Positions 268-36,261 of a stretch of DNA of 42,690 nucleotides are shown here, one piece after another. The DNA comes from Clostridia bacterium (GTDB taxonomy: Bacteria > Bacillota > Clostridia > Oscillospirales > SIG627). The notes beneath the pieces are model-generated. The model was not told the DNA's origin. It did no database searches and saw nothing but the letters and a program-made list of their open reading frames with translations. The DNA lies in the NCBI GenBank assembly GCA_017439965.1, contig JAFSID010000006.1, positions 1 to 42,690 of the forward strand, read 5' to 3'. How positions within the stretch are numbered: the first letter of the stretch is position 1; each line of letters begins with the position of its first letter. The position numbers and the translations under genes were made by a program.

Positions 268-277
268 TCAAACAAAT

Positions 278-312
278 AAAAGTGCATCGCAGAAATGCGG
301 TGCACTTTTTTG
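278..312 (+). terminator. Rho-independent terminator of the LRR gene
   Basis: AAGTGCATCGC pairs with GCGGTGCACTT (one mismatch) around a short loop, followed by TTTTTT. It sits 10 bases after the stop codon. An A-run on the left side also allows weak activity for transcripts arriving from the right. Confidence 0.8.
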
Positions 313-774
313 TTTGATTCTATCGCAGGTCGTCAATGCCTACGGCAGTGAAATTCGCTCATACGAGCGAGTGAAATGCACTTGCGTGCGTGAAATGTGC
401 TAAAGCACGTGAAATGTTTCACTTTGTGAAACGTTAAGGAAGAAAACCGCAAGCGGTTTTCAAAAATTAATCAGATAATAATCAAATAATAATCAAATAA
501 AATGGAGAAAGCGAAGCTTTAAACCACACCTCTTCACTATTACAGCTTACTTATTACTTTAATATTTTAATATTTTAGGTCTATATATAACCCTAAGTTA
601 TTTTTTAGATTAGGTCTATATATAGACCTGTTTTTTATCTGTACGGACTATATACGGTCCGAATTATATATAACCTAAAAATGAATTGCTCAGGGCAATT
701 CATTTTTTAAGCCATAAAAGTTTTTGCGGGTAAAGGGGGCTTTTCCCAAAAAGCCTCCTTTCACTGATAAAAAG

Positions 775-806
775 AAGAAAGCGGACTCCGTTGAGTCCGC
801 TTTCTT
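775..806 (-). terminator. Terminator of ftrC-trxA and head of element A
   Basis: AAGAAAGCGGACTC pairs perfectly with GAGTCCGCTTTCTT across a four-base loop; on the minus strand it is followed by CTTTTTATC. It starts 9 bases after the trxA stop. The same stem, with other loops, follows the ABC importer at 27048 and addB at 33570. Confidence 0.85.
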
Positions 807-815
807 CCTCTTATC

Positions 816-27041: not shown

Positions 27042-27047
27042 ATGGTC

Positions 27048-27077
27048 GAAAGCGGACTCCTGCGAGTCCGCTTTCTT
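27048..27077 (+). terminator. Terminator of the ABC importer operon and head of element B
   Basis: GAAAGCGGACTC pairs with GAGTCCGCTTTC around CTGC, then TTTGTTTT. A second hairpin, AAAGGGGGCTTTTT with AAAAAGCCCCCTTT (27091-27120), follows directly. Confidence 0.88.
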
Positions 27078-27204
27078 TGTTTTATCAGTAAAAGGGGGCT
27101 TTTTGAAAAAAGCCCCCTTTACCCGCAAAAACTTTTGTGGCTAAAAAACAATTTAGGGTTATATATAGACCTAACACAAAAAACAATTTAGGGTTAATTG
27201 AACG

Positions 27205-27408
27205 TAAACAAATCAACGGCGTAGCCGTTGTATATCATCTAGCCACAGGTAAATACACGCTGATGCGTGATGAGATACAAAGGCGGCTTGCCGCCTTTGA
27301 TGATATACACCGCACTTCGCACGGTGATGATATACCAAGCCTGCGGCTTGGATAAAAAATTCCAAGTCCGCAGACTTGGAATTTTTTTGGCCCACCCTAC
27401 AGGGCTCG
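27205..27408 (+). repeat. Direct repeat copy 1 (hairpin array plus tRNA-Arg tail)
   Basis: 204 bases that recur at 27437-27688. The repeat covers hairpin modules, a long tRNA-type terminator stem and the 3' 21 bases of tRNA-Arg. Only three substitutions are seen against copy 2 in the aligned parts. Confidence 0.9.
27388..27408 (-). pseudogene. Truncated tRNA-Arg 3' end (acceptor, CCA and part of T arm)
   Basis: TGGCCCACCCTACAGGGCTCG is identical to the 3' end of the intact tRNA-Arg at 27668-27688, including the encoded CCA. The match stops inside the T loop and unrelated sequence follows, so this is a fragment, not a gene. Confidence 0.9.
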
Positions 27409-27436
27409 CTCGCCTGCGTTTTACTTTCCGCTTCGT

Positions 27437-27688
27437 TAAACAAATCAACGGCGTAGCCGTTGTATATCATCAATTCTGAAAGAATTGCATATCATCAACA
27501 CTTGGTGTTGTATATCATCAAGCCACAGGTAGATACACGCTGATGCGTGATGAGATACAAAGGCGGCTTGCCGCCTTTGATGATATACACCGCACTTCGC
27601 ACGGTGATGATATACCAAGCCTGCGGCTTGGATAAAAAATTCCAAGTCCGTAGACTTGGAATTTTTTTGGCCCACCCTACAGGGCTCG
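27437..27688 (+). repeat. Direct repeat copy 2, with two extra hairpin modules
   Basis: Same as 27205-27408 except for 48 additional bases (27472-27519), exactly two modules of hairpin plus linker: AATTCT-GAA-AGAATT and AACAC-TTG-GTGTT, each followed by (TG/GC)ATATCATC. The right end lies inside the functional tRNA-Arg gene. Confidence 0.9.
27634..27667 (-). terminator. Terminator of tRNA-Arg
   Basis: AAAAAATTCCAAGTC pairs with GACTTGGAATTTTTT, a perfect 15-pair stem that starts directly after the encoded CCA. An identical stem except for one loop base is in copy 1 (27354-27387). Confidence 0.8.
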
Positions 27689-27744
27689 AACCTGTCACCT
27701 TCAGAATCGGAATCTGACGCTCTATCCAGATGGGCTAAGGGTGG
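27668..27744 (-). tRNA. tRNA-Arg (anticodon CCG)
   Basis: Read on the minus strand: acceptor CCACCCT (27744-27738) pairs with AGGGTGG, D arm TA-GCCC..GAGC, anticodon stem TCAGA/TCTGA with loop TTCCGAT giving anticodon CCG (codon CGG), variable AGGTG, T arm ACAGG-TTCGAGC-CCTGT, discriminator G and an encoded CCA. 77 bases in total. Confidence 0.95.
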
Positions 27745-33558: not shown

Positions 33559-33966
33559 AAATTATGGATGAAAGCGGACTGGAGTCCGCTTTCTTGATTT
33601 TAGTGGATTTCTTCTTTGTATATATTTGCGTTGCGTGAAAAACAAATATGGACTATATATAGTCCATACAGATAAAAAACAATTTAGGGTTATATATAGA
33701 CCTAATCCAAAAAATAATTTAGGGCTATATATAGACCCAACCTAAAAAACAGTTCAGGTTCATATATAGCCCTAATCTATGTATTTATAATTTTTTGAAA
33801 ACCGCTCGCGGTTTTCTTCCTTAACGTTTCCCATTTGGGGAACACATCATTTGACAGTAGGTCAAACATCATTCATCATTTGCGAAGCAAACATCATTTT
33901 CTTTGCGTTTCACAAAGTGAAACGCAAAGAAAATTTCACTGCCTTCGGCACAAGCAGAAGACAAAG
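33559..33966 (+). repeat. Mosaic intergenic element C
   Basis: About 400 bases without a gene. After the head hairpin come a perfect palindrome GGACTATATATAGTCC (33650-33665) and three related ones (33686-33703, 33721-33738, 33755-33772) spaced by about 35 bases, then GAAAACCG-CTCG-CGGTTTTC (33797-33816), the phrase TTCCTTAACGTTTC, and hairpins joined by CATCATT: TTTGC-GAA-GCAAA and TTCTTTGCGTTTCAC-AAA-GTGAAACGCAAAGAA among them. The second half matches element A read on the opposite strand. Confidence 0.75.
33570..33598 (+). terminator. Terminator of addB and head of element C
   Basis: GAAAGCGGACT-GG-AGTCCGCTTTC followed by TTGATTTT, 12 bases after the stop. Confidence 0.85.
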
Positions 33967-33994
33967 AAAGGCAGAGCCTTCCGACTCTGCCTTT
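33967..33994 (-). terminator. Terminator after the P-type-ATPase-like gene
   Basis: AAAGGCAGAG pairs with CTCTGCCTTT; on the minus strand it is followed by CTTTGTCTTC, a weak U-rich tail. It lies six bases after the stop. Confidence 0.6.
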
Positions 33995-33999
33995 GAGTA

Positions 34000-36261
34000 T
34001 TATTGGAATAAAGACGTTCCGAGAATTGGTAATGACCAGATAAGCTGATAGATAAGCACCGTAATCGGCGTTATCTTCTCGTGTGCGTTTGCGTTGAGCA
34101 TACAAGCGATAAGTATGATTACCGAGAGCACGATCGTTGCAAAGCGCGCAAGGTTATTAAGGTTGATAATGTGACGGCACTTGTCACACCAAGCAAACGT
34201 GCGGAGAAGCGATGGTACCGACTTGTTTGAAACGATGGGAGAAGATGCCTCAACCGACGTTTCACAAGCGGTGATGTATTCAGCCTGATTGAGCTTGCTT
34301 ACGACGATGGGGTAGTTATCGTCTCGGAGCATTCTCGTCATATAGCCCGTGTCGAGATTGGGGTCACAGCTCTTGATGACCATAAAAATACCTGCGTCGT
34401 AGAACTTATCCAAAATTGCCTTGAAGTTTCTTCCGAGAGAATATTTTATGTAGAACTTTGCCGAAAGCTCGTTCTCGGTGAGCATATACATTATTCTTCC
34501 ACCCGATGCCTCGAACATTGTATCGACGGGATCCTCGGGACAAACAACGCCGAGTGACCTCACTGCCGATTTCGTTCCGAAAAGCACGTTTTTGTCGTCG
34601 ATTACTGCGGCAATTGATGCGGGGAGTATTTCAAGTATTTCATCGTCCTCCGAAAGACCCGATGAGCCCGAGTCAATTATTGCTCGGTTAAACACGTCCT
34701 TGAGAGGTCCTCCGACAAGGCTGAAGACTCTTGATGCCGTGAGAATTGCCGTGTCCATACGCTCCTCTCCGAAGGGGACTACCGTGGAAAGCAGGATGCC
34801 CTTTGCGTTAAACGCATCGGTGTCCTTGAAGGAGATAACGCTTGCCGATGAGCAAGTGTCGAGCGAGGACTCTCCGATTACCGTGCTTCCTGAGTGTGAA
34901 AGTCTTAGAATGCCCTTGAGAAAGGGGAGAGATACAGATAGCACGGAAAAAACGGGAGTGGATATCACAAGTGCAAGAACGAGGTTGTCAAGCGTTCTAC
35001 CAAAGGTGGGATTGCCCGACATTATATTTGCGATAACGGCAAATATTACCGAGGTAAAAACGATAAGCGGAAGGATTACCTTATACACGTCGCCAAAGCT
35101 TGACTCCTCGCGACTTTTTGCGATGAAGCCCTTTACGAAGCTCGTCTTACCGAGTGAGTAGAGGTAAGGCTCCTCGGGGAGATACTGCTCAAACGCGGTG
35201 TATTCCTCGGCGGACTCGTCAAGTGTGTTTGCAACGAACTTCTGAGTATCGGCTGACGTAACGCGGAAGGAAACGCCCTCGCGTCTTATATCAAGGTAGC
35301 TTGCAACAGCGCAGATAAAGGCGGAAAGCGCCGCAACCGATGAGAAAAGCACCGTGCTGTCACTTGCCATATCGAAGATGAGGTGCAAAAGTATCTGCGT
35401 TGCGCAAACGCATTCGAGAAGGAATGCCACGCTGTACTTGTTGGGCTTTCGGGTGAAGAGCGCCTTTGCGCCGTTTAAAAATACCTTGTAGGTACAAGCG
35501 CCTGCAAAAACGAGGCACTGAAGGTCAAAAAGTAAATATAGGATTCCGTATTTGCCCTGAGTCAGCCATTCGGGATGAAGGACTCCGGGAGACTCGTGAA
35601 GGAATAAAAGCACCGTGAAAATGAGTCCTAAAAAGGCTGAGGCAAGAGCGTTTCTTGAGCGTCTCTTGTAGTTTGCAATAAACTCCTCTCTCTGCTCGGG
35701 AGAGGTGTATTCCTCCTCAACGGTTTTTTTCTTGACCTCGTCGTCGTAATCCTCGTCATCGTCATCGTCGTCATCGACGTCAATGCTTGTGAAGATTTTA
35801 TCCAGCGAGGGAGACTCGGTATCGTATTCGTCGTCTTCTCCGTCAAGCTCTACGGGCTTCTTTTTTTTCTTGGATTTTTTCTTTGCAAGGTCGAGATAAG
35901 GCTTGAGACTTTCGTCCTCGTCCTTCTCAATTTCGGGAGAAGGCTCCTCAAGAGGAATCTCCTTCAGCTTTTCGGAAAAGGATTTTTCTTTTTCCGTCTT
36001 CTTTTCTTTTTTCTTATCCTTGTCCTTTTTCTTGTCCTTCTTTTTTGTATATCCGTCTCCGAAAAGCTCGGAAAGACCGTCCTCCATATCAACGTCACTG
36101 GACTTGAATACCTTGGTTGAGTCCTCTCCGGTAAAGAAGGCACCTTGAGACTCTTCATCGGGAATCTCGTTTTCAAGCTCTACGTCTTCAAGCATAGGCG
36201 CCTTGTCCTCAATGGGAGCAGGTTTTCGGAGAGTGCCGTTTTTTATCCGATATTTTGACAT
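34000..36261 (-). CDS. Degenerate P-type-ATPase-like membrane protein with acidic/lysine-rich N-terminal region
   Basis: 753 residues. Residues 1 to about 200 are low-complexity: KKKDKKKDKDKKKEKK, EKDEDESL, KKKSKKKKK and a run of seven Asp. Then come four helices, a soluble stretch of about 70 residues, two helices (VILPLIVFTSVIFAVIANI and LVLALVISTPVFSVLSVSLPF), a soluble region of about 260 residues and two final helices, the 4+2+2 layout of P1B ATPases. Landmarks are recognisable but broken: VISTP for the SCP motif, SVISFKDTD where VVLDKTGT is expected, and DAGIFMVIKSCDPN where SGKEVIMLTGDN lies in CopA; GDGINDAP and TGES are absent. It cannot form the phospho-aspartate. It follows rlmB by 13 bases. 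Role unknown. Confidence 0.7.
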   Translation of the reverse strand: MSKYRIKNGTLRKPAPIEDKAPMLEDVELENEIPDEESQGAFFTGEDSTKVFKSSDVDMEDGLSELFGDGYTKKKDKKKDKDKKKEKKTEKEKSFSEKLKEIPLEEPSPEIEKDEDESLKPYLDLAKKKSKKKKKPVELDGEDDEYDTESPSLDKIFTSIDVDDDDDDDEDYDDEVKKKTVEEEYTSPEQREEFIANYKRRSRNALASAFLGLIFTVLLFLHESPGVLHPEWLTQGKYGILYLLFDLQCLVFAGACTYKVFLNGAKALFTRKPNKYSVAFLLECVCATQILLHLIFDMASDSTVLFSSVAALSAFICAVASYLDIRREGVSFRVTSADTQKFVANTLDESAEEYTAFEQYLPEEPYLYSLGKTSFVKGFIAKSREESSFGDVYKVILPLIVFTSVIFAVIANIMSGNPTFGRTLDNLVLALVISTPVFSVLSVSLPFLKGILRLSHSGSTVIGESSLDTCSSASVISFKDTDAFNAKGILLSTVVPFGEERMDTAILTASRVFSLVGGPLKDVFNRAIIDSGSSGLSEDDEILEILPASIAAVIDDKNVLFGTKSAVRSLGVVCPEDPVDTMFEASGGRIMYMLTENELSAKFYIKYSLGRNFKAILDKFYDAGIFMVIKSCDPNLDTGYMTRMLRDDNYPIVVSKLNQAEYITACETSVEASSPIVSNKSVPSLLRTFAWCDKCRHIINLNNLARFATIVLSVIILIACMLNANAHEKITPITVLIYQLIWSLPILGTSLFQ

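What the first reader, a model, noticed from the sequence alone, without database searches (positions are those of the whole stretch)
268..815. A mosaic intergenic element family occupies three convergent gene junctions
Elements at 268-815 (reading leftwards), 27042-27667 and 33559-33966 share an ordered set of parts: GAAAGCGGACT hairpin right after a stop codon; GGGGGC hairpin and CCCGCAAAAACTTTT phrase (A and B); TATATATA palindromes (all); AAAACCGC hairpin with TTCCTTAACGTTTC (A and C); then a hairpin array. Each is oriented away from the gene it follows and ends facing a gene or tRNA on the other strand. Parts are swapped in and out like BIMEs, but the components and linkers are not a family I recognise. 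Possible roles: transcription insulation between convergent units, mRNA 3' end protection, or a non-autonomous mobile element.
Basis: partly seen in the sequence, partly recalled or inferred. Interest (0 to 1): 0.8.

Follow-up and report, generated by a model that had tools for sequence, protein, structure and literature searches.

The report
Hairpin arrays parked behind transcription terminators
In uncultured, mostly gut-dwelling Clostridia, arrays of short inverted repeats predicted to fold into hairpins, among them the host-less "Gut-1 RNA" of the Rfam database, sit directly behind the predicted transcription terminators of tRNA, tmRNA and facing protein genes, where they likely spread as tiny mobile units whose mover is still unknown.

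Summary
A, C and the left part of B belong to a BOX-like modular repeat family: 41 module clusters found in this genome and one other carrier in its genus. Modules lie in 18 convergent junctions of 28, against 14 of 150 other junctions. The right part of B (27211-27667) is different: two tandem hairpin arrays behind tRNA-Arg, separated by a 21-nt copy of the tRNA's own 3' end that breaks in the T-loop. That array type lies behind tRNA and tmRNA genes in many gut Clostridia (94 distinct cases, 33 gene kinds). The array in A is Rfam Gut-1 (61.5 bits), until now without a host; it exceeds the cut-off in 102 of 295 genomes of the order, and 16 of 20 fetched strong copies directly follow a tRNA or tmRNA gene. 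All array types share one polar unit: constant linker plus hairpin, whose triloops are 79 GNA, 3 TNC, 41 other. Best reading: non-autonomous DNA hairpin units that accumulate behind terminators, BIME-like in logic, mover unknown. Mobility and function are inferred.

The parts
278..309 (+). predicted terminator of the left gene (1-267 +) beside element A
   Evidence: inverted repeat followed by T run
346..420 (+). hairpin array of A = Rfam Gut-1 RF01706, linkers GTGAAAT (ATTTCAC on the other strand)
   Evidence: 61.5 bits, gathering score 50
428..461 (-). M5 module: AAAACCGC hairpin with TTCCTTAACGTTTC
   Evidence: consensus scan, 0 mismatches; repeat search
575..672 (-). TATATATA palindrome units of A
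677..707 (-). M3-like AATGAATTGC hairpin of A
   Evidence: 13-bp perfect arms
712..766 (-). M2 module of A: GGGGGC hairpin and CCCGCAAAAACTTTT
   Evidence: 1 mismatch to consensus; repeat search
777..804 (-). M1 predicted terminator hairpin of the right gene (816-1121 -)
27048..27075 (+). M1 predicted terminator hairpin of B
   Evidence: 12-bp perfect arms
27091..27174 (+). M2 module and one palindrome unit of B
   Evidence: 0 mismatches each
27211..27353 (-). tRNA-type array, outer and shorter copy (143 nt)
27354..27387 (-). predicted terminator hairpin of the outer copy
   Evidence: 15-bp perfect arms
27388..27408 (-). 21-nt copy of the 3' end of tRNA-Arg, broken in the T-loop
   Evidence: as L160
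27443..27633 (-). tRNA-type array, inner and full copy (191 nt)
   Evidence: linkers found by pattern
27634..27667 (-). predicted terminator hairpin of tRNA-Arg
   Evidence: 15-bp perfect arms
27668..27744 (-). tRNA-Arg(ccg)
   Evidence: ARAGORN; Rfam
33570..33593 (+). M1 predicted terminator hairpin of C
   Evidence: 11-bp perfect arms
33647..33779 (+). palindrome units of C and the closing CAGTTCAGGTTCATATATAGCCC unit
33797..33830 (+). M5 module of C
   Evidence: 1 mismatch
33831..33960 (+). hairpin array of C with ACATCATT linkers
   Evidence: loop counts
33967..33994 (-). predicted terminator of the right gene (34000-36261 -)
   Evidence: 10-bp perfect arms

Best explanation
The elements are arrays and mosaics of short, predicted hairpin units that lie between a predicted intrinsic terminator and the next gene, and they likely spread there as non-autonomous DNA units that would be moved by an enzyme recognising the folded single strand. 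Each array unit is a constant linker (TATATCATC, ATTTCAC, ACATCATT or TATATCG) followed by an inverted repeat with a variable stem and most often a GNA triloop (shown by sequence). Full arrays hold two opposed runs of units with complementary linkers and an outer closing helix that changes on both sides together (shown by sequence; folding predicted). They sit behind tRNA and tmRNA genes and, in the A/C family, mostly between convergent genes (placement shown), where insertion would do least harm (inferred). At tRNA genes further small units likely insert in the T-loop and restore the 3' end while the old terminator and array are displaced (the tRNA copies are shown; enzyme and order of events are inferred).
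For: Dispersed copies. Placement: 18 of 28 convergent against 14 of 150; 94 distinct tRNA/tmRNA-linked arrays of 33 kinds; own genome 10 of 15 tRNA unit ends with an array, 3 with a T-loop insertion module, 2 with neither (read by eye). One polar unit in four linker types: 79 GNA, 3 TNC, 41 other triloops, against 12 triloops among 84 distinct terminators of the named loci. Same terminator and array type behind different tRNAs: 7 identical terminators behind two or more kinds, 24 of 94 arrays. T-loop copies: 14 downstream, 0 upstream among 141 tRNAs (lengths 18-23 nt). Module gain, loss and exchange at the same junctions of a sister species.
Against: No mover found: Y1 transposases are absent from the own genome and do not track arrays, and no integrase is among the families listed for 90 nearby ORFs (list cut at 25 of 141 families). 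No copies in viral contigs (two exact patterns), plasmids or phages. No clean present/absent pair of one array at one tRNA was proven: the tRNA-Arg of G008 and G010 lacks an array but differs otherwise too. G-T against A-C pair counts conflict between sets (28 to 73, 10 to 14, 20 to 10), so which strand folds, or whether RNA does, is open. Four divergent and six co-directional junctions break the convergent rule.
Confidence: 0.5

Rival explanations
1. The arrays are functional RNA: Gut-1 and its relatives are small RNAs, or tails made by read-through of tRNA and mRNA terminators, and are kept by selection on RNA structure.
For: Rfam lists Gut-1 as sRNA and PMC2864571 as most likely a noncoding RNA (passages). 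The closing helix has several unrelated versions with both sides changed. Wide spread in the order.
Against: Arrays start behind a predicted terminator and end at the -35 box of the next promoter in 22 of 41 TTGATT-ended arrays, so ordinary transcription would pass them by. Pair counts give no clear RNA strand. The unit runs in both directions within one array.
Confidence: 0.22
2. The elements are host devices at gene borders: stacked terminators, insulators or supercoil buffers between strong tRNA or convergent units and the next gene.
For: M1, M2, M3 and M5 are hairpins with A and T tracts; placement between facing terminators or between a tRNA terminator and the next promoter; 10 of 15 tRNA unit ends in the own genome.
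Against: Ordinary terminators already stand beside the arrays. The palindrome units are in 2 of 22 family genomes only, odd for a needed function. Avoidance of harm predicts the same placement, as for pneumococcal repeats and IS elements (PMC3049150, Table 1 as a passage).
Confidence: 0.13
3. No mobility: the arrays grow and change in place by slippage, template switching and gene conversion, which also keep the palindromes perfect.
For: Tandem units and block duplications; stems replaced as wholes with linkers kept.
Against: Near-identical terminator plus array behind different tRNAs and tmRNA in different genomes; about 41 dispersed module clusters in one genome.
Confidence: 0.1

Closest known systems
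Gut-1 RNA (Rfam RF01706)
   Same: The array of element A and many tRNA-linked arrays score above its cut-off.
   Different: Described as human-gut-only, most likely a noncoding RNA (PMC2864571, passages). Here it is one half of a larger two-sided array behind tRNA and tmRNA genes, multi-copy in known genomes.
BOX elements (and RUP, SPRITE) of pneumococcus
   Same: Composite repeats of interchangeable modules with a tandem middle part, predicted stem-loops, excess between convergent genes (PMC3049150, passages).
   Different: No sequence relation was tested; modules, palindrome units and hairpin arrays differ in kind. Link to an IS, proposed for BOX, is not known here.
REP/BIME with RAYT (Y1) transposase
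   Same: Polar unit of conserved foot and hairpin, units in direct and inverted order (REP features recalled).
   Different: Different foot sequence, very variable stems, GNA triloops, tRNA anchoring; no Y1 gene in the own genome.
Additive genomic islands and tycheposons at tRNA genes
   Same: Units stacked at tRNA genes and ended by direct repeats of part of the tRNA (PMC7771536, PMC10872708, passages).
   Different: Tycheposons are 4-200 kb with a tyrosine recombinase (PMC10872708). Here the tRNA copies lie 136-425 bp behind the tRNA as a rule, twice about 1.1 kb, and no recombinase was found.

Membership tests
Gut-1 RNA (RF01706) | covariance-model score at or above 50 bits | tested here: met
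   window 346-420 scores 61.5; 8 places over the cut-off in the genome
Gut-1 RNA (RF01706) | expressed as a small RNA | not testable with these tools
   no expression data; placement behind terminators speaks against it
BOX-type composite repeat | ordered modules with variable tandem middle units | tested here: met
   module orders in 41 clusters, up to ten palindrome units
BOX-type composite repeat | excess between convergent genes | tested here: met
   18 of 28 against 14 of 150
BOX-type composite repeat | terminal inverted repeats like those of a resident IS | not tested
   IS elements of this genome were not surveyed
REP/BIME | polar foot-plus-hairpin unit in both orders | tested here: met
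REP/BIME | RAYT (Y1) transposase in the genome | tested here: not met
   0 matches in the own genome; of the 6 array-bearing genomes that were examined, 2 have one
tRNA-integrating cassettes (additive islands) | direct repeat of the tRNA 3' part bounding the insert | tested here: met
   14 orphan copies downstream, 0 upstream, 141 tRNAs
tRNA-integrating cassettes (additive islands) | integrase carried or nearby | tested here: inconclusive
   90 of 202 ORFs near arrays scanned; no integrase among the 25 families listed of 141

The most novel reading that the evidence does not exclude
A new class of mobile DNA: hairpin-ladder units, mostly gene-less and sometimes with one gene, that colonise the space behind tRNA, tmRNA and convergent-gene terminators across a whole order of gut bacteria, enter through tRNA T-loops, donate the -35 box of the next gene, and include Rfam Gut-1, which is then the folded single-stranded DNA of a mobile unit and not a small RNA.
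Probability: 0.3. Interest if true: 0.9.

Novelty: new variant of a known kind. Interest (0 to 1): 0.72.

Why it matters
It gives an orphan Rfam family its hosts (over the cut-off in 102 of 295 sampled genomes of the order) and a context that points away from a free-standing small RNA. It shows that much of the spacer behind tRNA genes in these bacteria is one kind of repeat, whose end doubles as the -35 box of many next genes. Insertions bounded by tRNA T-loop copies make a mini-cassette system directly testable, and its mover is an open target.

Tried and rejected
One family for A, B and C: rejected; B's right part holds none of the A/C modules and has its own tRNA context.

REP-type mobility by a Y1 transposase: not supported.

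Strand of folding from G-T against A-C pair counts: conflicting, not decisive.

Phage or plasmid carriage: two exact patterns in viral contigs and one 280-nt query in plasmids and phages gave no match.

Cargo that explains the arrays: Pfam of 49 first ORFs behind arrays gave mixed families, the commonest 23S_rRNA_IVP and HTH_26 with 4 each. A wider scan used 90 of 202 ORFs.

First parse of Gut-1 closing helices read several loci on the wrong strand; redone by strand: 17 of 18 readable loci give 7-10 bp, L347 was misread, L342 gave no linkers, L341 was left out.

Literature: seven searches of an open-licence library. The search for Gut-1 RNA, Gut-1 motif or RF01706 found only PMC2864571; the search for T-loop cassettes in Clostridia found none. 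Five papers were seen as passages only.

Full report
What is there. The window is one contig (C35) of an unnamed 2.44-Mb genome in 106 contigs, 90.6% complete. Modules, read from the upstream gene: M1 terminator-like hairpin; M2 GGGGGC hairpin with CCCGCAAAAACTTTTGTGG; M3 AATGAATTGC hairpin; palindrome units TTAGGGYTATATATAGACCTAA spaced about 35 bp; M5 AAAACCGC hairpin with TTCCTTAACGTTTC; then an array of hairpins. In A and C the modules lie between predicted terminators of both facing genes.

Copies and placement. The palindrome half-site occurs 80 times in the genome against 0 for the reversed control. A consensus scan of the window and 37 fetched stretches gave 41 module clusters. Of these, modules fell in 28 gene junctions with scored genes on both sides: 18 convergent, 6 co-directional, 4 divergent; clusters at contig ends or without a scored gene on one side dropped out. 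The other 150 junctions in the same stretches were 14 convergent, 113 co-directional and 23 divergent (p=1.2e-9; p=3.3e-7 with background spacers of at least 100 bp). The gene caller was home-made and the stretches were chosen for elements, so the background is local. With up to two mismatches the palindrome unit is in 2 of 22 genomes of the family: the own genome and G011 of the same genus. G011 is 88-90% identical around elements B and C. At junction B, G011 has the M3 hairpin that the window lacks. At junction C, 42 nt of the window's array are missing in G011, the modules before M5 differ, and one hairpin reads TTTCAC-GTGAAA in place of TTTCCC-GGGGAA. Modules are thus gained, lost and exchanged at fixed places.

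Element B is composite. Only 27048 to about 27210 belongs to the A/C family. Behind it lie two tandem copies of another array, 27211-27353 and 27443-27633, each with its terminator-like hairpin, and between them a 21-nt copy of the 3' end of tRNA-Arg (27388-27408) that breaks in the T-loop. The full array reads, on the tRNA strand: terminator; first hairpin CCAAGCCGCAGGCTTGG; hairpins after TATATCATC-type linkers; CTGYGGCTT; hairpins after GATGATATA-type linkers; TTGATT. In many of the folded arrays (by eye) linkers of the two halves pair and the hairpins branch off; energies are similar on both strands. The first arm also pairs with the middle sequence over 9-12 bp in 16 of 19 linker-defined arrays (L161, L177 and L182 fall short). 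That helix has unrelated versions: AAGCCGCAG, AAGCCGACAG and ATTGCGAAAG there, AAATCCACC and AATAAATCC in Gut-1 arrays, and by eye AAATCCGTCC and GTTTGCCC in two own tRNA loci.

Distribution of the tRNA type. The pair TATATCATC-N10-30-TATATCATC is in 7 of 22 family genomes, 0 in the reversed control. They hold 118 arrays, 63 with an intact tRNA within 150 nt upstream. Of 113 with enough upstream sequence, another 35 have CCAA before the terminator without an intact tRNA and 15 have neither; CCAA alone is weak evidence. Over the loci given to, 94 distinct tRNA- or tmRNA-linked arrays of 33 kinds were found. In the own genome, 18 tRNA genes form 15 unit ends: 10 carry an array, 3 a T-loop insertion module (one of them with an array behind it), 2 neither (read by eye).

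Gut-1. The array of element A is Rfam RF01706 at 61.5 bits; the genome has 8 places over the cut-off. In 295 genomes sampled from the order, 102 have a match over the cut-off and 125 at E<=0.001; of 14 control genomes only E. coli has a match, below the cut-off. Of 20 fetched strong loci, 14 have a tRNA and 2 a tmRNA directly upstream; of the other four, L329 and L345 look by eye like displaced 3' ends, L341 seems to follow a protein gene, L348 is cut short. PMC2864571 (passages) lists Gut-1 as 'Human gut only' and most likely a noncoding RNA.

One unit. On the strand where the linker reads TATATCATC, ATTTCAC, ACATCATT or TATATCG, the distinct hairpins between two like linkers have 123 triloops: 79 GNA, 3 TNC, 41 other. 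Terminators of the named loci have 12 triloops among 84. That GNA triloops closed by C-G are unusually stable in DNA is recalled, not tested. G-T against A-C pairs were 20 to 10 on this strand, but 28 to 73 over whole A/C-family elements, where a few inherited variants dominate, and 10 to 14 in the pattern-found tRNA arrays. No folding strand is settled.

Insertion at T-loops. Among 141 distinct tRNAs, orphan exact copies of the last 18 nt were found 14 times downstream and 0 times upstream within 3 kb; orphan copies of the 5' end were 3 on either side. The matches extend to 18-23 nt, so they end inside the T-loop; they start 136-425 bp behind the tRNA, twice about 1.1 kb. By eye the inserted units carry a terminator and, in many, an inverted T-arm and an AAAAC-GTTTT hairpin; an inverted T-arm at 12 of 13 identity was found automatically for only 4 tRNAs. 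In G008 the tRNA-Arg of the same kind as in the window is followed by three further copies of its 3' end, one exact and two with one change, at a period of about 175 bp. L284 holds array, promoter and a 185-aa ORF before a copy 1142 bp away.

Promoters. Of arrays that end in TTGATT with at least 40 nt following, 22 of 41 have a TATAAT-like hexamer 16-18 bp on, 19 of them at 17, against 3 hits at the 17 other offsets tried; arrays ending in GTGATT have 0 of 35 there, but 17 of 36 have a promoter-like pair within reach, 14 of them with TTGAAT or TTGAAA (no shuffle control). The array thus reaches the -35 box of the next gene.

Reading. Placement behind terminators, one polar unit, exchange between loci and dispersal fit a non-autonomous DNA element better than a free small RNA. 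Seven identical terminators stand behind two or more kinds of tRNA or tmRNA, covering 24 of 94 arrays, so terminator and array travel apart from the tRNA; how this relates to the T-loop insertions is not resolved. Y1 transposases do not track arrays. Host function is open. The A/C family alone would be a new BOX-like repeat (PMC3049150, passages); the tRNA-anchored ladder arrays and the recasting of Gut-1 are the new part.

Noticed in passing
L207, L233, L238, L303, L312, L315: Genes that resemble 23S rRNA intervening-sequence proteins lie right behind arrays (PF05635 in 4 of 49 first ORFs), and look-alikes by eye stand at the tRNA-Arg of G007 and G011.
   Followed up: partly
L349, L352, L365 (own genome C80, C70, C72): Three tRNAs (Thr, His, Leu) are followed by a shared module with GTTAAGAAAACNNTTCGGGGAANNGTTTTTA and a T-loop-like sequence, a likely separate T-loop insertion unit.
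   Followed up: partly
L169:1380-1435: A tRNA-like sequence is interrupted in its T-loop by about 30 nt just before an array, so ARAGORN finds no tRNA there.
   Followed up: no
L147 (C89:12034-12354): Seven tandem 50-bp repeats of GGACTATATATAGTCC in a divergent spacer, without other A/C modules.
   Followed up: no
contig ends C36/C62 and C57/C58: Pairs of contig ends share long identical stretches inside elements, so the assembly breaks in them and copy numbers are lower bounds.
   Followed up: no
L165, L171, L209, L330, L338 and others: A recurring tail behind arrays, GAGTTCGAATTCATACGC...GTAGCCCATAGAC or a variant, looks like a degenerate T-arm and in some loci precedes a further terminator and array.
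   Followed up: partly
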